A stretch of 60,654 nucleotides of DNA from a virus: the IMG/VR virus record IMGVR_UViG_3300046777_001314, positions 1 to 60,654 of that record, one strand, 5' to 3'. The notes beneath the pieces are model-generated. The model made no database searches. It was not told the origin of the DNA and was given only the letters and a program-made list of their open reading frames with translations. Shown here piece after piece: positions 303-60,654 of this stretch. Numbering within the stretch: position 1 is the stretch's first letter; every line of letters begins with the position of its first letter. Position numbers and translations under genes: made by a program.

Positions 303-662
303 ATGGCATTTCCAGGTACATATAATTTTAGTTACTATCGTGGTGACACTTTTGAGTTTGTCATTAGCCCAAAATCTGCAAATGGAACAACTTTTCCATT
401 GGCTGATTATACTGGTGAAGGTTCTGCAGCAAATTTTAAAATTGCAAATGTTAGAGGATCTGCTGGTGTTCAGACAACAGCAAGTGCAGTAGTTGACGAT
501 GTTTTAAATACAGTAACATGCACAATCTCACCTTCTGTTGGAAGAGAATTAACTGCAGGATCTTATGTCTATGACGTTGAAATAATTAGTACAACTGGCA
601 TAATTCATACCCTTGTAACTGGAACCATAACTGTAACAGATGATATCTCTGGAGCAGTTTAA
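303..662 (+). CDS. Small beta-sandwich tail/baseplate-type protein
   Basis: A 119-residue protein with alternating beta-type sequence and no cysteine. The segment RGDTFEFVIS near the N-terminus and the closing segment LVTGTITVTDDI resemble the N-terminal domain of phage upper-baseplate or fibre-anchor proteins. The same pattern (xGDTxxFxV, a central basic KI segment, a YD-I strand, then a final G-I-V-D strand) recurs in the gene at 5066-5488, so the two look like paralogues. It begins with AGGAGG five bases before ATG and is followed by the next gene after 2 bases. The role is inferred from context and the paralogue; family assignment is tentative. Confidence 0.65.
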   Translation: MAFPGTYNFSYYRGDTFEFVISPKSANGTTFPLADYTGEGSAANFKIANVRGSAGVQTTASAVVDDVLNTVTCTISPSVGRELTAGSYVYDVEIISTTGIIHTLVTGTITVTDDISGAV

Positions 663-5065: not shown

Positions 5066-5488
5066 ATGGCTACATATAGAGATCAATTAGTCCAAAAAAG
5101 TAAATATGACGTTGGTGCAGTTCCACCAAAAGTTGAGTGGACCTTTGTAAAAGGTGATACAGCAGCATTTCGTGTTTATGTAACAGATGATAATTTAGAT
5201 CCATTAAATATTGCTGATTGGTCAATCAATATGAAAATTAAGAGACCAATAACAGATCCAGTTGTTCCTGGAGAAATTACAGATACAGCAACAACAATTA
5301 TGGCTAAGGTTCCAGCAGCAACAGTAGACGATGGTCCTGGCGAATTTACGGTTTCTTTAACAGCAGCAGAGACTCATAGTTTACAGACAAATGATATTTT
5401 TGATATTCAACTTTCTTTGCCACAAGATGATATTGTTTGGACAGTAGCACAAGGAAGAGTAATAGTTCTTGAGGATGTAACTGACTAA
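5066..5488 (+). CDS. Small beta-sandwich tail/baseplate-type protein, paralogue of 303-662
   Basis: A 140-residue protein. WTFVKGDTAAFRVYV, a central INMKIKRP segment, DIFDIQLSLP and the closing GRVIVLEDVTD follow the same order as in the 119-residue protein at 303-662, so the two are probably paralogues of an upper-baseplate or fibre-anchor domain. No cysteine, no signal peptide. It is likely translated from a near-leaderless message, and it overlaps the next gene by one base (TAATG). Role in tail decoration or fibre attachment is inferred. Confidence 0.65.
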   Translation: MATYRDQLVQKSKYDVGAVPPKVEWTFVKGDTAAFRVYVTDDNLDPLNIADWSINMKIKRPITDPVVPGEITDTATTIMAKVPAATVDDGPGEFTVSLTAAETHSLQTNDIFDIQLSLPQDDIVWTVAQGRVIVLEDVTD

Positions 5489-5744: not shown

Positions 5745-6191
5745 ATGACCCAAGTATCCTTAGCCAACGTAAAGACCAAGTTTGAGACTGGTGATCGTCC
5801 ATCCCAGCAAGACTATGAAGATTTAATTGACTCTACCGCTGGCCAAGCGACCAACCTTGGTTCTTTTGGTAACAATGACAACACAATCAACGGTATTGAA
5901 AATGTAACCGTTATAGATAATTTTGATGCAACACAATGGAGAATGGTCAAGTACATGGTCTCCATATCAAAGACTTCTGCTGGTGATAATAAGTTTTACG
6001 CCACAGAATTAACCATTTTGGTTGATGGAGAAGATATCTCTGTTAGCGAATTTGGAACGATAGACAATGATGGGAATATTGGCACCATTAGCGTCTCCAG
6101 GGTTAGTAACACGGTTGCCCTCACTGTTACACCAGACCCAGCAATCAAGCCTATTACTGTACGTTATGCACGTATGGGACTTAGAGCATAA
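5745..6191 (+). CDS. Fibre-cluster protein sharing a C-terminal beta module with the large fibre
   Basis: A 148-residue protein. The N-terminal third (VKTKFETGDRPSQQDYEDLI) resembles the lead segment of phage structural proteins that begin with a short helical tag. The rest is beta-rich: WRMVKYMVSISKTS, then FYATELTILVDGED and FGTIDNDGNIGTISVS. The last ~100 residues of the 795-residue fibre follow the same order (RSAKFIVKCA, VAEVLLTLDTSD, YAIVGTNGSS), suggesting a shared terminal module. It appears to be made from a leaderless message. Base composition is a little richer in G+C than its neighbours. Confidence 0.6.
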   Translation: MTQVSLANVKTKFETGDRPSQQDYEDLIDSTAGQATNLGSFGNNDNTINGIENVTVIDNFDATQWRMVKYMVSISKTSAGDNKFYATELTILVDGEDISVSEFGTIDNDGNIGTISVSRVSNTVALTVTPDPAIKPITVRYARMGLRA

Positions 6192-6209
6192 AACTAAGGA
6201 GATAATAAA

Positions 6210-8597
6210 ATGGCAACAGTCAACAAAGACTTTAAAGTAAAGAATGGACTCATCGTTGAAGGTACAACTGGTACCATTAACAACTATGACATTCTAACAA
6301 AAGATCCAGACGATCAGACCTACATCATTGGTCTTATTGGTGGATCAGCATCATCAAATAATGATCCAGACACAGTAGTTCTTCGTGATGAAAATGGAGA
6401 TTTTGCTGCTAACGTAATCACAGCAGAAGATCATTTTGTTGGAAATCTTACTGGTGATGTAACTGGTACAGTATCAGACATTTCAAACCATAATACAGAT
6501 GACCTTTCAGAAGGTACAACAAATAAGTATTACACAGATGGTCGTGTTAAGGATGTTCTTACAGGATCTACACAAACCAATATTTCTATTACAGAGGTTG
6601 GCGGAGTTCTTCATATTACCGCTGAAAATGGCGTAGCAGACTCAACAACAGATAATCTTGCAGAGGGTACTACAAATAAGTACTTTACAGAACAGCGTGT
6701 TCGTGACACACTTTCTGGTGGAGATGGAATTGCATTCAATTCTACTACAGGAGATATTTCTGCAGATCTTGGTACAGGACTTAACATTGATGGTTCTGCA
6801 AAGATTGCAATTGATCGTACAACTGTTGATGCTTGGTATGATGCTGCAGGTTCAGCATCATCAGTAGCAGGAGATCTTACAACACACATTAATGATACAT
6901 CTACACACGGTGTAACTGGCGACATTGTTGGTACATCAGATTCACAAACACTTACAAATAAGACACTTGAAGGAACTGTATATCTTGGTTCTGCAAATAC
7001 AAACGATGCATACATTCAGACTGAAGTTGATGGTGCAGGAGACCTCACAGTTCATGCAGGTAACAACCTAACACTTTCAACATCTACTGGAGATATTGTT
7101 CTTAATCCAGATGGTACAGCATATGTTGGTTCTGCTTCAGCAGGCAATGAAATTGCAACTAATTCATATGTTGACAACGCAGTTTCTGGTCTTAACTGGA
7201 AGCAGGCAGTAAATCTTCTTGCTAATACAGATGTTAATATGACTGGCGCAACAAATACTCTTGTAATTGATGGCCACGCAGCACTAGACTCTTCTGATAT
7301 TGGATATCGTATTCTTCTTACTAATCAAGACATAGATTCTGAAAACGGTATTTATTCATATACAGAAACATCTGGAACATATACTCTTGTACGTACAGAT
7401 GATGCAGATGCATTTGGTGAATTGGTTGGAGCAGCAGTCTTCGTAATGGAGGGTACAACATATGGTCAAACATCATGGGTACAGTCTAACCACTATCTAA
7501 CTGACTTTGCATCACAAGATTGGACACAGTTCTCTGGTTCGGGTTCTGTTGTTGCAGGAACAGGTATTACAGTAGATGGTCTTGAAGTTTCTGTAGATCG
7601 TACAACTGTTGATACTTGGTATGATGCAGCAGGAACCGCTACTTCAGAAGTTTCTACACATAATAGCCTAACAACTGGTGTTCATGGTGTAACTGGAAAT
7701 GTTGTAGGAACATCTGATTCTCAGACTCTTACAAACAAAACAATTGATGCTTCAAGCAATACACTTTCTAATATTGATAATTCATCACTTACAAATTCAT
7801 CAATCACAGTTAATGGATACTCAACTGACCTTGGTTCATCTGTAACACTTGGAACAGACGATGTTTCTGAAGGTACAACAAATAAGTATTACACAGATCA
7901 GCGTGTAAGAGATGTTTTGACTGGTTCAACCCAGACAAATATTTCAATCACTGAAGTTTCTGGACAACTTATTGTTACAGCAGAAAACGGTGTTGATGAT
8001 TCAACTACTGACGATCTTGCAGAGGGTGTAACAAACCACTACTTTACAGATGGTCGTGCAAAAGATGCAGCAGCAGATCTCTTGACAAATGCAACCCTTA
8101 CAAATATCTCAATCACTGGTACAGGCGCAGGCCTTACAATTACTGCTGAGAATGGTGTTGCAGACTCTGATACTGACGATCTTGCAGAGGGCACAACAAA
8201 CCTTTACTTCACAGATCAGAGAGCAGTGGATGCTCTTGAGGCAGTTGTTCCAAACTTTACAGCAGTTGAGGTTAACTCACTTGCAAAGCAGATTGCAGCA
8301 ACAACTGGTCTAGTTGCTACAGCATCAACAGTAACTGCATACTCTTTCTTCAAAGACGAATATCGTTCAGCGAAGTTTATTGTTAAGTGTGCATATGGTT
8401 CACATACAGAAGTTGCAGAGGTTCTTTTGACCCTTGATACTTCAGACAATATCGCTCTTACAGAGTATGCAATTGTTGGAACTAATGGTTCATCAATGAC
8501 AATTTCTGCTGATGTAAGCGGTACTGATGTAAGACTTCGTGTAACAACAGTCAACAATAACTCAACAGTTAATGTTGTCGGAACACTACTAGCATAA
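6210..8597 (+). CDS. Large modular tail fibre protein
   Basis: A 795-residue fibre. The N-terminus MATVNKDFKVKNGLIV is shared with the 152-residue protein at 8618-9076 and is probably the virion-attachment tag. The body is built from repeats of the type EGTTNKYYTDxRVxDxL followed by TNISITE and AENGVADSTTDN; at least five copies are visible. Pairs such as RTTVDAWYDAAG and RTTVDTWYDAAG, and SDSQTLTNKT twice, are further repeats. The C-terminal ~100 residues form a beta module shared with 5745-6191. Such fibres are trimeric and contact the host surface. It has an AAGGAG site and is codirectional with the next two genes. Confidence 0.85.
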   Translation: MATVNKDFKVKNGLIVEGTTGTINNYDILTKDPDDQTYIIGLIGGSASSNNDPDTVVLRDENGDFAANVITAEDHFVGNLTGDVTGTVSDISNHNTDDLSEGTTNKYYTDGRVKDVLTGSTQTNISITEVGGVLHITAENGVADSTTDNLAEGTTNKYFTEQRVRDTLSGGDGIAFNSTTGDISADLGTGLNIDGSAKIAIDRTTVDAWYDAAGSASSVAGDLTTHINDTSTHGVTGDIVGTSDSQTLTNKTLEGTVYLGSANTNDAYIQTEVDGAGDLTVHAGNNLTLSTSTGDIVLNPDGTAYVGSASAGNEIATNSYVDNAVSGLNWKQAVNLLANTDVNMTGATNTLVIDGHAALDSSDIGYRILLTNQDIDSENGIYSYTETSGTYTLVRTDDADAFGELVGAAVFVMEGTTYGQTSWVQSNHYLTDFASQDWTQFSGSGSVVAGTGITVDGLEVSVDRTTVDTWYDAAGTATSEVSTHNSLTTGVHGVTGNVVGTSDSQTLTNKTIDASSNTLSNIDNSSLTNSSITVNGYSTDLGSSVTLGTDDVSEGTTNKYYTDQRVRDVLTGSTQTNISITEVSGQLIVTAENGVDDSTTDDLAEGVTNHYFTDGRAKDAAADLLTNATLTNISITGTGAGLTITAENGVADSDTDDLAEGTTNLYFTDQRAVDALEAVVPNFTAVEVNSLAKQIAATTGLVATASTVTAYSFFKDEYRSAKFIVKCAYGSHTEVAEVLLTLDTSDNIALTEYAIVGTNGSSMTISADVSGTDVRLRVTTVNNNSTVNVVGTLLA
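6510..6539 (+). repeat. 30-base exact direct repeat, copy 1
   Basis: This stretch inside the fibre gene is identical to 7869-7898. It encodes the EGTTNKYYTD core of the fibre repeat unit. Confidence 0.85.
6636..6659 (+). repeat. 24-base exact repeat shared between two fibre genes, copy 1
   Basis: Identical to 9766-9789 in the neighbouring fibre gene at 9121-11232. It encodes the ADSTTDNL segment, showing nucleotide-level module sharing between separate genes. Confidence 0.85.
7869..7898 (+). repeat. 30-base exact direct repeat, copy 2
   Basis: Identical to 6510-6539 in the same gene, about 1.36 kb upstream. Confidence 0.85.
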
Positions 8598-8617
8598 TTA
8601 CTAAAGAGGAGTAAGAG

Positions 8618-9076
8618 ATGGCAACAGTTGATAAAGACTTCAAAGTAAAGAATGGGCTTGTCGTTGCAAACGGCGGTTCATTTGGAGGAACAGTCACTGT
8701 TGCCACTCCTACCCTTGGTACTCATGCAACAACAAAAGATTATGTTGATGCTATTGCTGGCTCACCGTCAGTTCCAGTATCAAGTGAAGCACCAGTTTCC
8801 CCAATTGAAGGAAATCTTTGGTATGACACATTAACAAATAGACTTTATGTTTACTATAATTCAGAATGGATTGCACAGGCTTCACTCGCTGACTCAGAAG
8901 TTCTTCAAGATCACATTCATGATACTGCAATTGATGGTTCAGGACTTATAGTAAGTATTTTTAAAGATGCTGGATATTATAATGAAGCGGGTACCCCATT
9001 AGATGCTGGTTACTACAATACTAACTCATGGTCAGCAACATGGGATGGCGGAATTGCGATAGATAATTTTAATTAA
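8618..9076 (+). CDS. Short fibre-type protein with the same N-terminal tag as the large fibre
   Basis: A 152-residue protein. Its first 15 residues, MATVDKDFKVKNGLV, repeat those of the 795-residue fibre, so both probably dock to the same virion site. The next part (PTLGTHATTKDYVDAIAG) matches the ATxxYVD linker common in phage fibres, and EGNLWYDTLTNRLYVYYNSEW is a widespread fibre beta element. The C-terminus is acidic and Tyr-rich. It follows an AGAGGAG site. It may be an adaptor or a second short fibre. Confidence 0.7.
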   Translation: MATVDKDFKVKNGLVVANGGSFGGTVTVATPTLGTHATTKDYVDAIAGSPSVPVSSEAPVSPIEGNLWYDTLTNRLYVYYNSEWIAQASLADSEVLQDHIHDTAIDGSGLIVSIFKDAGYYNEAGTPLDAGYYNTNSWSATWDGGIAIDNFN

Positions 9077-9082
9077 TTATCT
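9061..9082. repeat. 8-base perfect inverted repeat just upstream of a promoter box
   Basis: AGATAATT and AATTATCT flank a 6-base spacer and the right arm abuts the TGTTATAAT box at 9082. It could be an operator, but in AT-rich DNA a chance palindrome is also plausible. Confidence 0.35.
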
Positions 9083-9090
9083 GTTATAAT
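9082..9090 (+). promoter_or_regulatory. Extended -10 promoter TGTTATAAT
   Basis: Lies 30 bases before ATG 9121, 5 bases after the previous stop, with GTGAGGAG as ribosome site in between. Confidence 0.7.
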
Positions 9091-9120
9091 ATAACTAAAT
9101 ATACGTGAGGAGTATATAAT

Positions 9121-11232
9121 ATGGCAACAAGAATGCAACAGCGCAGAGGAACCGCTTCACAGTGGACAGGTGCTAATCCAATCCTAAATGCAGGTGAAAT
9201 TGGATGGGAATCAGATACTAATAAATTTAAGATTGGTGACGGAGTAAATCACTGGGCTGATCTAAACTACTTCGTAGATGGAGCAGAACTATCAAATATT
9301 ATTGATGGTGCCCCTGCACTTCTTGATACACTTAATGAATTGGCAGCAGCAATTGGTGATGACCCAGCATTTTTCACAACAGTTGCCACAAATCTTTCTA
9401 ACCATGAATCAGATACAACAAATGTCCACGGAATTGCAAATACAGCAGATCTTGCAACACAAGAATATGTTGATTTAGCAGTCGGAAATGCAGAAGTTGA
9501 CCAGTCAACACTTGCAGGAACAGGTATTGATTGGAACGTTGGAACATCACAGTTTGACATTGATTCAACAGTAGCAACAAAGACATATGCAGATGATGCA
9601 GTGTCAACACACTCCTCAGATACCACTTCTGTTCACGGTATTTCTGATACAGCAGAATTAGCAACAAAGACATTTGCAGCAGAACTCCTCACAAATGCTA
9701 CAAAGTCTAATATTACAATTACAGGCGATAAGAATGGTCTTACAATTACTGCCGAAAATGGAGTCGCAGACTCAACAACAGATAATCTTACAGAAGGATC
9801 TACTAACAAGTATTTCACAGACGAAAGAGCACAAGATGCTGTTGGAAATGCAGTTGGAACTGGTCTTACTTATACAGATGCAACTGGAGAAATTAAAGTA
9901 ACTCCAAATACATACGATGCATATGGAGCAGCCTCAACAGCAGAGTCAAATGCAAATTCATATACTGATACTGCAGTAAGCGGTATTTTAGATGGATCAA
10001 CCTTTACTGGAGTAGTTTCAGTTTCAGATACAACAGAATCAACATCAACAACTACTGGTGCAGTAAAAACTGCGGGTGGTCTTGGTGTAGCAAAGAATGC
10101 CTATATTGGTGGAAACCTAGTAATCTCTGGAGACTTCACTGTAAATGGAACTACAACTACCGTTAGCACACAGGACTTAGTTGTTCAAGACCCACTTATT
10201 TATGTTGGAGAAAATAATGCAGCAAACTCTGTAGATCTTGGTATTGTTGCATCATTTGATAATGGAACATATCAGCACACAGGACTTGTTCGTGATTCAT
10301 CTGACAATGCTTGGAAACTTTTCAAGGGTGTAACAGATGAACCAACAACAACAGTAAACTTTGCACAAGGATCACTTGATGATCTTCAGGTTGGTGGATT
10401 AGCAGCATCATCAATGACATTGGGTGGAATTAATGTTGCCACAGAATCATATGTTGATGGCGCAGTCAGCAACGCAGAAGTTGACCAGTCAACACTTGCT
10501 GGATATGGAATTGACTGGAATGTTTCTACATCACAGTTTGACGTTGATACAACAACTATCCAGGCAAGAGTAGCAGACGTATCTGATACAGAAATTGGAT
10601 ACCTTAATGGTGTTACTTCTGCAATTCAGACACAAATTGATTCTAAGGCACCTTCTGCATCACCAACAATTACTGGACATGCAACAATTGAAGGTGTAAC
10701 AGCAACAGGTGCAACAGGAACAGGAAAATTTGTATTTGATAATTCTCCAACACTTGTGACACCTGTACTTGGTGTGGCTACTGCTACATCTATCAACGGT
10801 ACAACAATCCCATCATCTAAGACTATTGTAGTTACTACAGATAAGTTGAGCGTACACGCTGCTACTACATCTGCAGAACTAGCGGGTGTTATCTCTGATG
10901 AGACAGGTACTGGCGCTCTTGTATTTGCTAATTCTCCAACATTGGTAACACCAGCACTTGGAACACCATCATCTGCAACGTTAACAAATGCAACTGGCCT
11001 ACCACTTAGCACAGGTGTGACAGGAACTCTTCCAGTTGCAAATGGTGGTACTGGACTTACATCATACACATCTGGTGATTTTATCTATGCAACTGGTTCA
11101 ACAACACTTTCTAAACTTGGAAAGGGATCTGCAAACCAAGTAATGTACATGAAGGCTGATGGTTCGGGACCAGAGTGGAGAACTGCAGCAGCAGGAGCAG
11201 CATTCAGCGAATTAATGTTGATTGGTGCATAG
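9121..11232 (+). CDS. Large modular tail fibre protein
   Basis: A 703-residue fibre. The N-terminus (MQQRRGTASQWTGANPIL, then EIGWESDTNKFKIGDG) is the widespread phage fibre start that reads 'grid of samples' in hyaluronidase-type fibres. Two copies of NAEVDQSTLAG and GIDWNV with SQFDxD mark an internal repeat. EGSTNKYFTDERAQDAV matches the repeat of the 795-residue fibre. The C-terminal third has SPTLVTPxLG repeated, then LPVANGGTGLTSY, a classic fibre ending before a short tip (AFSELMLIGA). Likely trimeric and host-contacting. It ends the first promoter-to-terminator block. Confidence 0.85.
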   Translation: MATRMQQRRGTASQWTGANPILNAGEIGWESDTNKFKIGDGVNHWADLNYFVDGAELSNIIDGAPALLDTLNELAAAIGDDPAFFTTVATNLSNHESDTTNVHGIANTADLATQEYVDLAVGNAEVDQSTLAGTGIDWNVGTSQFDIDSTVATKTYADDAVSTHSSDTTSVHGISDTAELATKTFAAELLTNATKSNITITGDKNGLTITAENGVADSTTDNLTEGSTNKYFTDERAQDAVGNAVGTGLTYTDATGEIKVTPNTYDAYGAASTAESNANSYTDTAVSGILDGSTFTGVVSVSDTTESTSTTTGAVKTAGGLGVAKNAYIGGNLVISGDFTVNGTTTTVSTQDLVVQDPLIYVGENNAANSVDLGIVASFDNGTYQHTGLVRDSSDNAWKLFKGVTDEPTTTVNFAQGSLDDLQVGGLAASSMTLGGINVATESYVDGAVSNAEVDQSTLAGYGIDWNVSTSQFDVDTTTIQARVADVSDTEIGYLNGVTSAIQTQIDSKAPSASPTITGHATIEGVTATGATGTGKFVFDNSPTLVTPVLGVATATSINGTTIPSSKTIVVTTDKLSVHAATTSAELAGVISDETGTGALVFANSPTLVTPALGTPSSATLTNATGLPLSTGVTGTLPVANGGTGLTSYTSGDFIYATGSTTLSKLGKGSANQVMYMKADGSGPEWRTAAAGAAFSELMLIGA
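9766..9789 (+). repeat. 24-base exact repeat shared between two fibre genes, copy 2
   Basis: Identical to 6636-6659 in the fibre gene at 6210-8597. Confidence 0.85.
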
Positions 11233-18968: not shown

Positions 18969-18977
18969 TGGTATAAT
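18969..18977 (+). promoter_or_regulatory. Extended -10 promoter TGGTATAAT, near-leaderless
   Basis: An ATG at 18976 lies inside the box and cannot serve a transcript from this promoter. ATG 18988 in the same frame is 11 bases beyond the box and is the likely start. Confidence 0.7.
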
Positions 18978-55953: not shown

Positions 55954-56479
55954 AGAAGATTTAGTAAAACATCTTGATCAAGTAAATCAAGTTGTTTCTG
56001 AGTATCTAAAAGGCTCTGACCCAACAAGAATTTCTAAAGAACTTTCTATACCAAGAGTTCGTGTTGTAGAACTTATTAATGAGTGGAAGGTTATGGCTTC
56101 TGCTAATGATGCCATACGTGCCCGTGCAAAGGAAGCACTTGCAGCGATGGATGCACACTATAGCAAACTAATTACAAAATCATATGAGGTTATTGACGAA
56201 GCAACTATGACTAATAATCTTAGCGCAAAAACTCAAGCAATTAAACTTGTTGTTGATATTGAAAAAGCAAGAATTGATATGCTTCAAAAAGCAGGACTTC
56301 TTGAAAACAAAGAACTTGCAGAAGAAATGGTTGAGATTGAAAAACGTCAAGAAACACTTGTTGCAATATTAAGAGATATAGCATCATCTCATCCAGAAAT
56401 TCGTGACCTAATTATGCACAGACTTTCTTCTGTTGCAAAAGATGGAGAAGTGATTACAGTTGTCCACAATGTTCAATGA
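55943..56479 (+). CDS. Terminase small subunit (candidate)
   Basis: A 178-residue, fully helical protein. ISKELSIPRVRVVELINEW looks like a helix-turn-helix for binding the packaging site, followed by long helices (IRARAKEALAAMDAHYSKL, EKARIDMLQKAGLLEN) for oligomerisation. It lies immediately before the large terminase and overlaps it by 11 bases. Small terminases recognise viral DNA and stimulate the motor. Assignment rests on this architecture and position. Confidence 0.72.
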   Translation: MSTEEDLVKHLDQVNQVVSEYLKGSDPTRISKELSIPRVRVVELINEWKVMASANDAIRARAKEALAAMDAHYSKLITKSYEVIDEATMTNNLSAKTQAIKLVVDIEKARIDMLQKAGLLENKELAEEMVEIEKRQETLVAILRDIASSHPEIRDLIMHRLSSVAKDGEVITVVHNVQ

Positions 56480-58247
56480 TTTTTTTGAGGCGTTAAAAAA
56501 TAATAACTTTGAGGAAATTCCCGTAGATGCTAAGACATTTGTTGAAGGTGAATCATATCTAAATCAACCTCCACTCTCTGATATACAATATGACATTGTT
56601 GAGGCAATGAGTCAAATTTATAGAGAAGAAGATCTTGTAGATATCATGGGGGCAGAAGAAGGTCATCGCTATTATAAGAAGTATACAAAGAATGAGGTCA
56701 TTCTGCAACTTGGCAAGGGATCTGGAAAAGACTTTACATCAACCGTAGCATGTGCATATATCGTATATAAACTACTATGCCTAAAAGATCCTGCTAGATA
56801 CTTTGGTAAGCCCGCAGGAGATGCAATTGATATTATTAACGTGGCTATTAACGCTCAACAGGCTAAGAATGTGTTCTTTAAAGGATTCAAGACTAAGATT
56901 GAAAAGTCTGAATGGTTTGCAGGAAAATACAATGCAAAGGCAGAAAGCATTGAGTTTGATAAAGCAATCACGGTTTACTCTGGTCACTCAGAAAGAGAAT
57001 CACACGAAGGTTTGAACCTTATTCTTGCAGTACTTGATGAAATTTCTGGTTTTGCAACTGAAGTAGGAACTGGTAATGATCAAGGTAAGACTGCAGATAA
57101 TATCTATAAGGCATTCCGTGCATCTGTAGATTCTCGTTTCCCTGACCTTGGTAAGGTTGCACTGCTCTCATTCCCTCGTTTTCCAGGTGACTTTATCTCG
57201 CAAAAGTATGAAGATGCAATTATGGAAAAAGAAGTCATTACAAAGACACATCGTTTTATCATGAATCCAGACTTTCCAGAAGATGCTGAAGGAAACTATT
57301 TAGATATTGCTTGGGACGAAGATCAGATTATTGCATATAAATATCCTGGGGTATTTGGATTAAAAAGGCCAACATGGGTAGTAAATCCAACCCGTAAGAT
57401 TGATGATTTTAAATTAGCATTCTTTACAGATATGGGTGATGCAATGCAACGCTTTGCCTGTGTACCAACCTTTGCTTCTGACGCATTCTTTAAGCAAAAG
57501 GATAAACTTGAAAAGTGTATGACGCTTAGAAATCCAATTGATAATAATAAAAGGTTTGATGAATCATTTACTCCAGATCCAGATAAAGTTTATTATGTCC
57601 ATGCTGACCTTGCACAAAAGCATGACAAGTGTGCAGTAGCAATTGCACATGTTGATAAGTGGGTTAATCTTCAAGTAGTTAAAGATTATGAACAGGTTGC
57701 CCCAATTATTATTGTTGATGCTGTTGTATGGTGGGAGCCAAAGGTTGAAGGTCCAGTAAACCTTTCGGAAGTAAAACAGTGGATTCAAAATCTTCGTAGG
57801 CAGGGATTTAACCTTGGCATGGTTACATTTGACCGTTGGCAGTCATTTGATATTCAACAAGAACTTCAAGCAGTAGGAATAAGAACTGATACTGTTTCTG
57901 TTGGTAAAAAACACTATGAAGATCTTGCAATGATGGTTTATGAAGAGCGTATTGCTATGCCAAGAATACCTTTATTGCTTGACGAAATGTCTGAACTTAA
58001 GATTATTAATGATAAAAAGGTTGATCACCCACGTAAAAAATCTAAAGACCTTTCAGATGCAGTTACTGGGGCTGTCTTCGGCGCATTGTCTCACACCCCA
58101 AAGAATACTAATATAGAGATTGATATTCATACGTGGTCAACTTCAGCAAAGAAACTTGCTGAGAGCGAACAACGTATGGTAGAATTGGATAGTCGGGAAA
58201 TGCCTGAAGAAGTTCGGGAATATCTTGGCAACTTCAATTTATTGTAA
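56469..58247 (+). CDS. Terminase large subunit
   Basis: A 592-residue packaging motor. ATG 56469 is preferred over TTG 56460. LQLGKGSGKDFTS near residues 80-92 is the Walker A motif, and LILAVLDEISGF near 190 is Walker B with the catalytic Glu. The C-terminal nuclease has YYVHADLAQKHDKCAVAI (first Asp), GMVTFDRWQS, and KSKDLSDAVTGAVFG (last Asp). It uses ATP to drive DNA into the prohead and cuts concatemers. Being late in the order and far from the portal is common in permuted maps. Confidence 0.92.
   Translation: MFNDFFEALKNNNFEEIPVDAKTFVEGESYLNQPPLSDIQYDIVEAMSQIYREEDLVDIMGAEEGHRYYKKYTKNEVILQLGKGSGKDFTSTVACAYIVYKLLCLKDPARYFGKPAGDAIDIINVAINAQQAKNVFFKGFKTKIEKSEWFAGKYNAKAESIEFDKAITVYSGHSERESHEGLNLILAVLDEISGFATEVGTGNDQGKTADNIYKAFRASVDSRFPDLGKVALLSFPRFPGDFISQKYEDAIMEKEVITKTHRFIMNPDFPEDAEGNYLDIAWDEDQIIAYKYPGVFGLKRPTWVVNPTRKIDDFKLAFFTDMGDAMQRFACVPTFASDAFFKQKDKLEKCMTLRNPIDNNKRFDESFTPDPDKVYYVHADLAQKHDKCAVAIAHVDKWVNLQVVKDYEQVAPIIIVDAVVWWEPKVEGPVNLSEVKQWIQNLRRQGFNLGMVTFDRWQSFDIQQELQAVGIRTDTVSVGKKHYEDLAMMVYEERIAMPRIPLLLDEMSELKIINDKKVDHPRKKSKDLSDAVTGAVFGALSHTPKNTNIEIDIHTWSTSAKKLAESEQRMVELDSREMPEEVREYLGNFNLL
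58177..58185 (+). promoter_or_regulatory. Weak candidate extended -10 box TGGTAGAAT
   Basis: Same sequence as the box at 25626. Lies in the end of the terminase gene, 83 bases before ATG 58269. It could supply the surface-protein gene, but chance within coding sequence is possible. Confidence 0.3.
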
Positions 58248-58268
58248 AAAATACTAACAAGGAGAAAA

Positions 58269-59981
58269 ATGAATTCATTTAAGAAAATTGCCCTAGGTCT
58301 TGCTGCAGCGATGACTTTTGGCGTTATGTCAGCACTTCCGACAAGTGCTGCTGTAATCGGTCCAACACTAACGATTGACTCTGCTACAGATACAATCACT
58401 GCTGGTGAAACCGCAACTGCAGTAGTAACATTGTCGTTTATTTCAGAAACAGCAGCAGATACAGCAACAGTGCTTTCTGCTATGTTCTCACAACCAACAG
58501 GTGCATCAAAGAATGCAACACTTACATTGCTTGAGACAACAACTGCTACAGTTGCAGTTGCAGCAGGAAATCTTTCTGCTGATGTTAACTCAACAGTTGG
58601 AACACCAGGATATGTAACTGCAAAGTTTACAGTATCATTGGTTGCACCAACGGTTGCAGGAACATACGAAGCAAGAATTATTACAACTAAGCCAGCAACT
58701 GGTCCATCAGTAGCATGGACAGTTACAGTTAAGGCAGCAGATGTTACACCTTCTGCAGCAACAACAACTTCAATCCTAAATGCTGGTGAAGTAACAACTG
58801 CAACAGCAGATGCTTCAGTTTATGCACCAAAGGCTACTTCTACAGATGCAGCAGCAGTAATTGTGGTTACACCCAAGAATGCAGCAGGTGGAGCAGCAAC
58901 TGAATCAATTCTTGCAACAGTAACAGGATCAGGTCTTGTTGGCTATGGCACAAATGCTACAACAATGACAGCAATGGGTCGTGCACTAGTAATTCCTACA
59001 GGCAACTACGTTGGTGTATTTTCTGACGGTACAGCAGGAGTTGGAACAGTTACTCTTACAACACTTACAGGTACAGTACTTGCAACAGAGCAGGTAACAT
59101 TCTATGGAGATATCGCTACAATCGTAGCAACTACAGTTAAGTCTGTTATTGCAGTTGGTGCAAATACAACTACAGTTAAGGCAGTTGCAAAGGATGCTTC
59201 TGGCGTAACAGTTGGCGCAGGCACACTATATGCATATTCATCAGATATTGCAACAGTTTCTGATTCAGGAACAGCAGCAACTATCGTAGATGGTGCAGCA
59301 ACATTTACTCTTACTGGCGTTAAGGCTGGTGGAGTTGCCATCACAGTAAAGAACTCAGCAGGAACAATTGTCTCTGCTCCAGTTGCTACTCGTGTAGAAG
59401 CAGCAGCAGCAACAGTTAAGTTGTCATTTGATAAGGCTGTATATCTTCCAGGAGAAGCAGCAACCATTAAGGTTCAGGTTCTTGATGCAGCAGGTCTTCC
59501 AGTATCTGGAAAGACACACTCTGCTCTATTTGCAACAGGTGGAATTGTTTCTAACTATGCATTTGGTTCAGGATCAGATGTTCTTACAGCAACATCAGTT
59601 ACAACTGATACAGAAACTGTAAAGTCATATAAGGTATTCATGCCATTGACTGAAAACACTGTAACAATCACAGCAACTGGTGGATCATCTCTTCCAGTAG
59701 CAGGTCAGGTTGCAGTTACAGCATCAGCAGTTGTTTCTAATGAAGCAGCAAAGGCTGCTACAAAGGCTTCTGAAGAGGCAGCAAAGGCAGCACAGGCTGC
59801 TACAGATGCAGCACTTGCTGCAGCAAAGGCTGCTGACGAAGCAACACTTGCTGCTAAGGCATCATCAGATGCAGTAGCAAAACTTTCAAAGTCTGTTGCT
59901 TCAATGATTGCTTCACTTAAGAAGCAAATCACAGCACTTACCGCTCTAGTCTTAAAGATTCAGACAAAGGTAAAGGCTTAA
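58269..59981 (+). CDS. Secreted Ig-like surface protein with Ala-rich coiled-coil tail
   Basis: A 570-residue protein. Residues 1-28 are a Sec signal peptide (NSFKKIALGLAAAMTFGV, with an SA cleavage region). Residues about 30-160 and 270-470 are Thr/Ala/Val-rich Ig-type beta modules (VKAVAKDASGVTVGAGTL, a Big_2-like ending SAGTIVSAP). Residues about 490-570 form an Ala/Lys/Glu coiled coil (AAKAATKASEEAAKAAQAA, ending LVLKIQTKVKA). No LPxTG or hydrophobic anchor is visible. It resembles abundant surface-layer proteins of aquatic bacteria. Codon use is Ala/Thr-heavy and more G+C-rich than neighbouring genes, hinting at host origin. A superinfection or surface-remodelling role is possible. Confidence 0.75.
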   Translation: MNSFKKIALGLAAAMTFGVMSALPTSAAVIGPTLTIDSATDTITAGETATAVVTLSFISETAADTATVLSAMFSQPTGASKNATLTLLETTTATVAVAAGNLSADVNSTVGTPGYVTAKFTVSLVAPTVAGTYEARIITTKPATGPSVAWTVTVKAADVTPSAATTTSILNAGEVTTATADASVYAPKATSTDAAAVIVVTPKNAAGGAATESILATVTGSGLVGYGTNATTMTAMGRALVIPTGNYVGVFSDGTAGVGTVTLTTLTGTVLATEQVTFYGDIATIVATTVKSVIAVGANTTTVKAVAKDASGVTVGAGTLYAYSSDIATVSDSGTAATIVDGAATFTLTGVKAGGVAITVKNSAGTIVSAPVATRVEAAAATVKLSFDKAVYLPGEAATIKVQVLDAAGLPVSGKTHSALFATGGIVSNYAFGSGSDVLTATSVTTDTETVKSYKVFMPLTENTVTITATGGSSLPVAGQVAVTASAVVSNEAAKAATKASEEAAKAAQAATDAALAAAKAADEATLAAKASSDAVAKLSKSVASMIASLKKQITALTALVLKIQTKVKA

Positions 59982-59997
59982 ATAATCCAACAATTAG

Positions 59998-60025
59998 GGG
60001 AGTCAGGAAACTGGCTCCCTTTTTT
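59998..60025 (+). terminator. Rho-independent terminator after the surface-protein gene
   Basis: GGGAGTCAG (59998-60006) pairs with CTGGCTCCC (60011-60019), one G-U wobble, over a GAAA tetraloop, followed by TTTTTT (60020-60025). Confidence 0.92.
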
Positions 60026-60037
60026 GTTTGTATAAAA

Positions 60038-60046
60038 TGATATAAT
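60038..60046 (+). promoter_or_regulatory. Extended -10 promoter TGATATAAT
   Basis: Twelve bases after the terminator U-tract. The expected start point near 60053 leaves a leader of about 19 bases before GTG 60072. Confidence 0.7.
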
Positions 60047-60071
60047 AGGGTTATTAAACATCGGAAAGGAT

Positions 60072-60654
60072 GTGCCCCCTATCAAAAATCTCCTACTAAA
60101 AAGTGGGTTGGTGGCATTTTTAGTGGGATTGTGGTTCATTCTATGTCCAACCGATCAGGCACATGCTGATGAAATAGTAACAAACCAAGTATCCTCATCA
60201 GACACATCAACTGCAACAATAGATTCTTCTTCAATAATAATAGTACATACATCAATAGAAAGTGCTACAGCCATCATTGAGGTAGCCCAGGCTACAATTA
60301 CTCAGGCTGAAACTACCACGGCAGTTATACAAACCCAAGCAACAGCCATTACAAGCCCTACAGATACCATTACAGCCACTATCACACAGGCACAGGAATC
60401 AATTGTCCAGGCTCAAACAGTAGTAGATAGTGCTACTGTGGCTGTCAATAATGTAATTTCTAATCAGAATTTTCTGGATCAAGCAATAGAAACTCAAACA
60501 GCCATGGCACAAATAGTAGCCACAGAATCAGCAACAGTCCTATCTTTAATAGACAGTATGACAGTTCTTAATAACCAGATTGATAGCCAGACAGCAACTG
60601 TTAATACAGATAGTGCTACTGTTACAACTCTTCAGGGCGATGTAACATTAATTG
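60072..60654 (+). CDS. Secreted Thr/Ala/Gln-rich protein, start complete, cut by window edge
   Basis: An open frame from GTG 60072 runs to the right edge without a stop (at least 194 residues). It opens with a clear signal peptide: PPIKNLLLKSG, a hydrophobic core (LVAFLVGLWFILC) and an AHA cleavage site before DEIV. The mature part is low-complexity, with repeated QA and T-A-T runs (TITQAETTTAVIQTQATAI, ATITQAQESIVQAQ), suggesting a long helical or coiled-coil surface filament. GTG follows GGAAAGGA at very short spacing. ATG 60070 is out of frame and stops after nine codons, so GTG is the best start. It is the second secreted product beside the terminase. Confidence 0.7.
   Translation, partial: MPPIKNLLLKSGLVAFLVGLWFILCPTDQAHADEIVTNQVSSSDTSTATIDSSSIIIVHTSIESATAIIEVAQATITQAETTTAVIQTQATAITSPTDTITATITQAQESIVQAQTVVDSATVAVNNVISNQNFLDQAIETQTAMAQIVATESATVLSLIDSMTVLNNQIDSQTATVNTDSATVTTLQGDVTLI

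What the first reader, a model, noticed from the sequence alone, without database searches (positions are those of the whole stretch)
58269..60654. Two secreted surface-type proteins directly after the terminase
A 570-residue Ig-like protein with a coiled-coil tail and, after a terminator and new promoter, a second secreted Thr/Gln-rich protein are encoded next to packaging genes. Both carry signal peptides, and neither looks like a virion protein. The first has a composition like host surface-layer proteins. They could coat the host during infection to block rival phages, alter adhesion or act as decoys, a role rarely described outside of immunity membrane proteins.
Basis: inference. Interest (0 to 1): 0.7.

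Follow-up and report, generated by a model that had tools for sequence, protein, structure and literature searches.

The report
Phage-exported surface proteins behind terminase
These lake viruses, which probably infect actinobacteria, carry right behind their DNA-packaging gene a slot for exported proteins, with interchangeable outer parts and a shared tail, that probably coat the infected cell; this was not found described before and could be how such viruses fend off competitors.

Summary
P1 (58269-59981) is a 570-aa protein with a signal peptide, tandem Ig-like domains and a coiled-coil tail. A terminator and an extended -10 promoter follow, then P2 (60072 to window end), of which the window holds only the first 194 aa (relatives 657-1114 aa). 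P1 sits right after terL in 154 of 164 scorable viral loci, and P2-like genes follow in 67 of 74. In a set chosen by TerL alone, the gene after terL is a signal-peptide protein in 56 of 64 loci, against 7 of 70 for more distant TerLs. Several unrelated middle regions share the signal-peptide style and basic C-terminal tails, so this is a cargo slot for exported proteins with interchangeable ectodomains. P1 alleles are exchanged between phages and evolve faster than TerL (dN/dS 0.28 vs 0.105). P2 relatives are built as signal peptide, head (often PA14), roughly 30-nm coil and C-terminal hydrophobic helix with basic end; P2 shares its promoter class with late virion genes. Best reading: late envelope-displayed coat and stalked lectin that interfere with adsorption or re-adsorption. 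Export is well supported; the blocking function is inference. No cellular homologue was found, but the host search was limited.

The parts
56460..58247 (+). terL, large terminase subunit; the gene that fixes the position of the slot
   Evidence: 53% identity over the full length to Stanwilliamsviridae Streptomyces phages; PHROG terminase large subunit
58259..58264 (+). AAGGAG ribosome-binding site of P1
   Evidence: read directly; AAGGAG or close variant in relatives
58269..59981 (+). P1: 570-aa exported protein (signal peptide, tandem Ig-like domains, coiled-coil tail type A)
   Evidence: P1 directly after terL in 154 of 164 loci
58269..58349 (+). P1 signal peptide MNSFKKIALGLAAAMTFGVMSALPTSA
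   Evidence: sequence; N-terminal MNSFKK style kept across slot families whose mature parts differ
58356..59738 (+). P1 ectodomain, residues 30-490, beta/Ig-like
   Evidence: AlphaFold model; VIA-align Z 12.0 to adhesin FdeC (280 aligned, rmsd 10.4)
59112..59402 (+). Big_1-like Ig domain, residues 282-378
   Evidence: intimin D0-D1 Z 10.6, rmsd 2.5, 95 aligned, 22% id; Pfam Big_1 E 0.0012, below curated cut-off
59742..59975 (+). P1 C-terminal coiled-coil tail, type A; end of protein basic
   Evidence: single helix 492-569; tails of types A, B and C exchange between proteins; last 20 aa +4 to +8 in all types
59996..60031 (+). intrinsic terminator after P1
   Evidence: terminator in 90 of 97 distinct P1-downstream gaps with different stems
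60038..60046 (+). extended -10 promoter TGATATAAT of P2, same class as late virion-gene promoters
   Evidence: 15 TGNTATAAT in the window vs 5.5 expected; 10 of 12 on the + strand lie 7-31 nt before gene starts
60072..60654 (+). P2, N-terminal 194 aa (cut by window end): signal peptide and Thr/Gln-rich coil
   Evidence: relatives 53-91% identical over the shared part; full length in L082:207-2666 and L088:8001-10463

Best explanation
P1 and P2 are phage-encoded proteins that the infected cell exports through Sec and that act on the cell envelope, not in the virion. P1 occupies a fixed cargo slot behind terL. Its signal peptide and basic coiled-coil tail are standard parts, and the Ig-like ectodomain between them is exchanged and diversifies. 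The tail probably holds the protein on the anionic cell wall so that many copies coat the cell. P2 is made late, from the same promoter class as virion genes: an N-terminal head (often a PA14 domain, a fold that often binds sugars) on a roughly 30-nm coil, tied to the membrane by a C-terminal hydrophobic helix, long enough to reach through a Gram-positive wall. Together they most likely mask or occupy the phage receptor, so that competing phages, and the phage's own progeny at lysis, do not adsorb to the producer cell or its debris. Supported here: export signals, architecture, the slot, allele exchange, P2's promoter class. Inferred: wall attachment, membrane anchoring, blocking.
For: Slot: signal-peptide protein after terL in 56 of 64 TerL-selected loci vs 7 of 70 for distant TerLs (Fisher p about 6e-21). 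Different middle regions with a common tail: best BLASTP hit between the P1 family and the short (298-379 aa) families is E 0.027, yet an HMM of P1 type-B tails finds only slot proteins among 4,768 ORFs, including these families (E 5e-17 to 5e-4). Allele exchange: TerL-P1 distance r 0.09 vs TerL-TerS 0.67; same P1 (88% id) in a different phage without a TerL match (L078). Faster evolution: dN/dS 0.28 vs 0.105. Adhesin-like Ig domains. P2: PA14 above Pfam cut-off in five of ten tested relatives; C-terminal hydrophobic 19-mer plus basic end in 57 of 58; stalk median 213 residues, about 32 nm if fully helical. P2 shares its promoter class with virion genes.
Against: No functional data. Signal peptides and the C-terminal anchor come from simple hydropathy rules, not SignalP or a TM predictor; the P2 C-terminal helix is Ala-rich and only moderately hydrophobic. 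Swapping heads and stalks are also typical of receptor-binding fibres, and P2's late promoter is shared with virion genes. Classical superinfection exclusion is usually expressed early. No known defence family matched. The TGNTATAAT count (15 vs 5.5) is an enrichment, not proof of a regulon.
Confidence: 0.42

Rival explanations
1. Envelope remodelling without competition: the exported proteins replace or reinforce the host surface late in infection, keeping swollen cells intact, hiding them from grazers or other agents, or preparing lysis together with the exported S8 protease and endolysin encoded next door.
For: The genes after P2 in L088 include a membrane protein, an exported S8 subtilase, Hsp20 and a CHAP/peptidoglycan-binding endolysin. 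P1's domains resemble structural surface proteins; S-layer SbsC is among Foldseek hits (rank 46, E 9e-9).
Against: A purely structural coat would not need exchange of ectodomains between close relatives or a PA14 head on P2.
Confidence: 0.22
2. Adhesin: P1 and P2 make infected cells stick to neighbours or particles through Ig and PA14 domains, so that progeny are released next to new hosts.
For: Top structural matches of P1 are bacterial adhesins (FdeC, intimin, InvD, InvE); PA14 heads in P2 relatives.
Against: Ig-like tandem domains are shared by many proteins without adhesin function. Adhesion of free-living plankton cells would have to be shown.
Confidence: 0.14
3. Virion proteins after all: P2 (and perhaps P1) are receptor-binding fibres that are exported and join the particle at or after lysis, or the N-terminal hydrophobic segments have another role.
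For: Exchangeable heads on coiled coils resemble tail fibres; weak PHROG tail-fibre matches (E 0.0017-0.016) that fall mostly on coil regions; late promoter shared with virion genes.
Against: Tailed phages assemble in the cytoplasm; signal peptides are kept while mature parts change; separate tail-fibre-like genes exist at 5745-11232; P2 C-termini have a hydrophobic helix followed by basic residues.
Confidence: 0.15
4. Recently captured host surface-protein genes without a selected phage role.
For: Surface-protein architecture.
Against: No relative in two genome scans; conserved in most clade members with purifying selection (dN/dS 0.28), conserved terminator and promoter.
Confidence: 0.03

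Closest known systems
CwpV of Clostridioides difficile (PMC4737114)
   Same: Large signal-peptide surface protein whose export is needed and whose surface domain interferes with infecting phages; the paper tested several CwpV types
   Different: Host-encoded and phase-variable; blocks a step after adsorption (probably DNA injection), not adsorption; no sequence relation tested here; P1/P2 are phage-encoded, in a fixed slot after terL
Phage-encoded superinfection-exclusion envelope proteins (T5 Llp, phi80 Cor, TP-J34 Ltp, HK97 gp15; named from general knowledge, gp15 also in PMC4737114)
   Same: Phage gene product placed in the host envelope; proposed to protect the infected cell
   Different: Those are small lipoproteins or membrane proteins; P1 and P2 are large multidomain exported proteins with exchangeable ectodomains; activity not shown
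Intimin/invasin-type bacterial adhesins (Big_1 Ig domains: FdeC, intimin, InvD, InvE)
   Same: Tandem Ig-like fold; residues 282-378 superpose on intimin D0-D1 at rmsd 2.5
   Different: Those are outer-membrane beta-barrel-anchored proteins of diderms; P1 has a signal peptide and a coiled-coil tail with a basic end, and its Big_1 match is below the Pfam cut-off
Stanwilliamsviridae (Streptomyces phages LukeCage, Karimac)
   Same: TerL 53% identical; similar order of replication genes before terL
   Different: LukeCage has an HNH endonuclease and hypothetical genes after terL, no P1 or P2; no P1 or P2 match in 50,697 phage records
SEC10/PgrA surface exclusion domain (TIGR04320)
   Same: Coiled-coil surface protein that blocks entry of competing DNA, by conjugation (general knowledge)
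   Different: Match to P2 (L082) is E 0.00056, 19.3 bits against a cut-off of 70, over the coil only: not a member

Membership tests
Phage superinfection-exclusion proteins | encoded by the phage | tested here: met
   P1 directly after terL in 154 of 164 viral loci; window lies in an IMG/VR virus record
Phage superinfection-exclusion proteins | product placed in or on the host envelope | tested here: inconclusive
   signal peptides by hydropathy rule and C-terminal hydrophobic helix of P2 relatives; no experiment
Phage superinfection-exclusion proteins | protects the cell against infection by related phages | not testable with these tools
   needs an adsorption and plating assay
Known anti-phage defence families (PADLOC) | HMM match to a defence protein | tested here: not met
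   no match for P1; only a coil match to ZorA at 14.5 bits for one P2 relative
Bacterial Ig-like Big_1 (PF02369) | score above the curated cut-off | tested here: not met
   19.4 bits against a cut-off of 34.9; the fold is similar
PA14 (PF07691), for P2 relatives | score above the curated cut-off | tested here: met
   L008, L049, L055, L118, L120 at 26.1-37.1 bits against 24; the window clade's own head (L082) has no Pfam match and no clear PDB fold match
Bacterial S-layer protein | homologue in a bacterial surface layer | tested here: inconclusive
   no relative by pattern scans of 84,980 species genomes; distant homologues not reached
Bacterial S-layer protein | forms a regular lattice | not testable with these tools
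   needs microscopy
Phage virion structural protein | match to a virion family or presence in particles | tested here: inconclusive
   no PHROG virion match for P1 (only phrog_825 of unknown function at E 0.079); weak tail-fibre matches of P2 relatives, mostly on coils; particles not testable

The most novel reading that the evidence does not exclude
A clade of abundant freshwater phages keeps a dedicated disguise locus behind terL: a slot in which an exported surface protein with standard signal peptide and wall-binding tail is fitted with changing ectodomains, paired with a late membrane-anchored stalked lectin. The phage would thus rebuild the outer surface of its host in an allele-specific way to exclude competitors and free its progeny, a surface counterpart of allele-specific immunity.
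Probability: 0.3. Interest if true: 0.82.

Novelty: new variant of a known kind. Interest (0 to 1): 0.6.

Why it matters
Large phage-encoded exported surface proteins with exchangeable ectodomains in a fixed genomic slot were not found in the papers searched. If they exclude competitors, they give a sequence handle on phage-phage competition among plankton. The slot, tail types and alleles make clear predictions that can be tested one protein at a time.

Tried and rejected
Host homologues: two pattern scans of genome contigs found no relative; no further route to host genomes was open (caps). Pfam, NCBIfam, PADLOC and PHROG gave nothing above cut-off for P1. The PDB sequence profile gave only a chance hit to glutamate racemase. 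Foldseek and VIA for the P2 head of the window clade (A4, pLDDT 78): no match with E below 0.001, best Z 5.8, not interpretable. Foldseek hits of P1 to complement/alpha-2-macroglobulin have TM about 0.2 and reflect repeated Ig folds only. Single-linkage clustering of slot proteins at E 1e-3 merged everything and was replaced by stricter clustering with low-complexity filtering; families I and II share one region (E 1e-9), so 'unrelated' holds for family I vs the short families, not for all pairs. A guess from memory that the tails resemble host surface proteins could not be tested and is not used. P1's own promoter: a TGGTAGAAT-like site lies in the end of terL but that stretch is coding; only L152 (TTGACA-18-TATAAT) and L036 (TTGACA-18-TACAAT), two of the loci read, show a clear one. 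A Pfam call with wrong coordinates failed and was repeated with letters.

Full report
What is there. The window is a 60,654-base virus record. Its right end reads terS-like gene, terL (56460-58247), P1 (58269-59981), terminator, promoter, P2 (60072 to the end). TerL is 53% identical over its full length to Streptomyces phage terminases of the Stanwilliamsviridae, and LukeCage has a similar order of replication genes before terL but an HNH gene after it. The host is therefore probably an actinobacterium; that is inference. P1 (570 aa) has a signal peptide, beta domains at 33-489 and one C-terminal helix at 492-569 (mean pLDDT 75.8). VIA-align gives bacterial Ig-like adhesins first (FdeC Z 12.0, 280 aligned, rmsd 10.4; intimin D0-D1 Z 10.6, rmsd 2.5 over residues 282-378). 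This is a shared fold, not a function.

Conservation. P1 follows terL in 154 of 164 scorable loci and a P2-like gene follows within 3.5 kb in 67 of 74. The gap after P1 holds a terminator in 90 of 97 distinct sequences, nearly all with a TGNTATAAT-type -10. P1 also occurs elsewhere: L078, a 136-kb phage contig without a match to this TerL, carries a P1 88% identical next to glycine-rich fibre-like genes, and L125, L134 and L145 carry it near proteasome-like, S8 protease and lysin genes.

The slot. Because the P1 loci were chosen by P1, I collected loci by TerL alone. Among 64 with enough sequence, 56 have a signal-peptide protein directly after terL; the eight others have NrdI or ribonucleotide reductase genes there (named by eye). 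Among 70 loci with more distant TerLs, only 7 pass the same rule, four of them P2-like proteins and three small membrane proteins (Fisher p about 6e-21). At a strict cut-off the slot proteins fall into 15 groups, at looser ones into 4-5. The large P1 group (532-587 aa) and the short groups (298-379 aa) have no significant similarity in their middle parts (best E 0.027). Yet an HMM built from P1 type-B tails finds, among 4,768 ORFs of all loci, only slot proteins, including the short groups (E down to 4e-11) and a 542-aa group (5e-17). P1 itself has two tails, type A and type B (75 and 29 of 104 in the main group), and a third, cysteine-containing type occurs in two proteins of another group. 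All types end basic: +4 to +8 in the last 20 residues. The simplest reading is a standard exported carrier (signal peptide plus tail) with an exchangeable ectodomain.

Evolution. In 52 loci with complete Cas4, RuvC, TerS-like, TerL and P1, distances of neighbouring TerS and TerL correlate (r 0.67), those of neighbouring TerL and P1 do not (r 0.09). These loci were fetched through P1 or P2, which narrows P1 diversity, so the exact value is not general; single cases such as L018 and L106 (TerL 1.3% apart, P1 43% apart) and L036 and L152 (TerL 23%, P1 1.4%) show exchange directly. Median dN/dS is 0.28 for P1 and 0.105 for TerL: faster, but still under purifying selection. P1's codon bias (ENC 35.1) resembles virion genes more than TerL (42.8), a weak hint of high expression.

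P2. The window holds 194 residues. Complete relatives in 58 distinct forms have, with few exceptions of start choice, a signal peptide, a variable N-terminal part, an Ala/Glu-rich coil (median 213 residues, about 32 nm if fully helical) and a conserved C-terminal block ending in a hydrophobic 19-mer followed by a basic end in 57 of 58. Heads vary: PA14 above the Pfam cut-off in five of ten tested, another beta domain without a recognisable fold in the window's own clade. The window has 15 TGNTATAAT sites against 5.5 expected. Of the 12 on the + strand, 10 lie 7-31 nt before gene starts, among them tail-fibre-like genes (9121 and the tail-connector-like 5745) and P2, and another lies in the last bases before the head protease gene at 18976. 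P2 is therefore probably late.

How it may work. Export and surface placement are the best-supported steps. Attachment of P1 by its basic tail and of P2 by its C-terminal helix are inferences from sequence. The function I consider most likely is interference with adsorption: of rivals during infection, and of progeny to the dying cell and debris at lysis. CwpV of Clostridioides difficile shows that a large exported surface protein can stop phages, although there after adsorption (PMC4737114). Rivals are envelope remodelling, adhesion, and a virion role. None can be separated by sequence alone.

Novelty. No P1 or P2 match exists in 50,697 phage records, no relative of P1 was found in two genome scans, and the paper searches found no description; the library holds open-licence papers only. 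I file it as a new variant of a known kind, phage-encoded surface-altering proteins, because the function is not shown.

Noticed in passing
window, + strand sites 278, 1230, 5048, 5730, 9082, 13424, 18969, 21753, 26346, 41307, 60038: TGNTATAAT extended -10 sites precede mostly virion genes, none before the replication genes: a likely late promoter class of this phage group.
   Followed up: partly
L088:11960-12901 and L145:4333-5265: Signal-peptide S8 subtilase encoded near P1/P2 and the endolysin in different phage lineages; a third exported protein that could trim the host surface.
   Followed up: no
L049:11235-12479: 414-aa exported protein with an HEFAH motif (possible metallopeptidase) in a phage contig carrying P1; no family above cut-off.
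   Followed up: no
L088:11280-11804, L049:6225-6779, L145:3337-3906: Proteasome-like Ntn hydrolase conserved in phages that carry P1; L088 copy above Pfam cut-off.
   Followed up: no
L254, L255, L257 downstream of terL: In phages with distant TerL a P2-like protein, not a P1-like one, sits directly after terL.
   Followed up: no
L184, L187, L210, L211, L231, L239, L242, L244: Clade members without a slot protein have NrdI-like or ribonucleotide reductase genes directly after terL.
   Followed up: partly
window 303-662 and 5066-5488: Two proteins of the same PHROG family (phrog_1084), each behind a TGATATAAT site: probable paralogues in the tail-fibre region.
   Followed up: no
L145:8148-11635: Several small proteins resembling 2-oxoglutarate dioxygenases in a row next to P1 in an 81-kb phage contig; seen by eye, not tested.
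   Followed up: no
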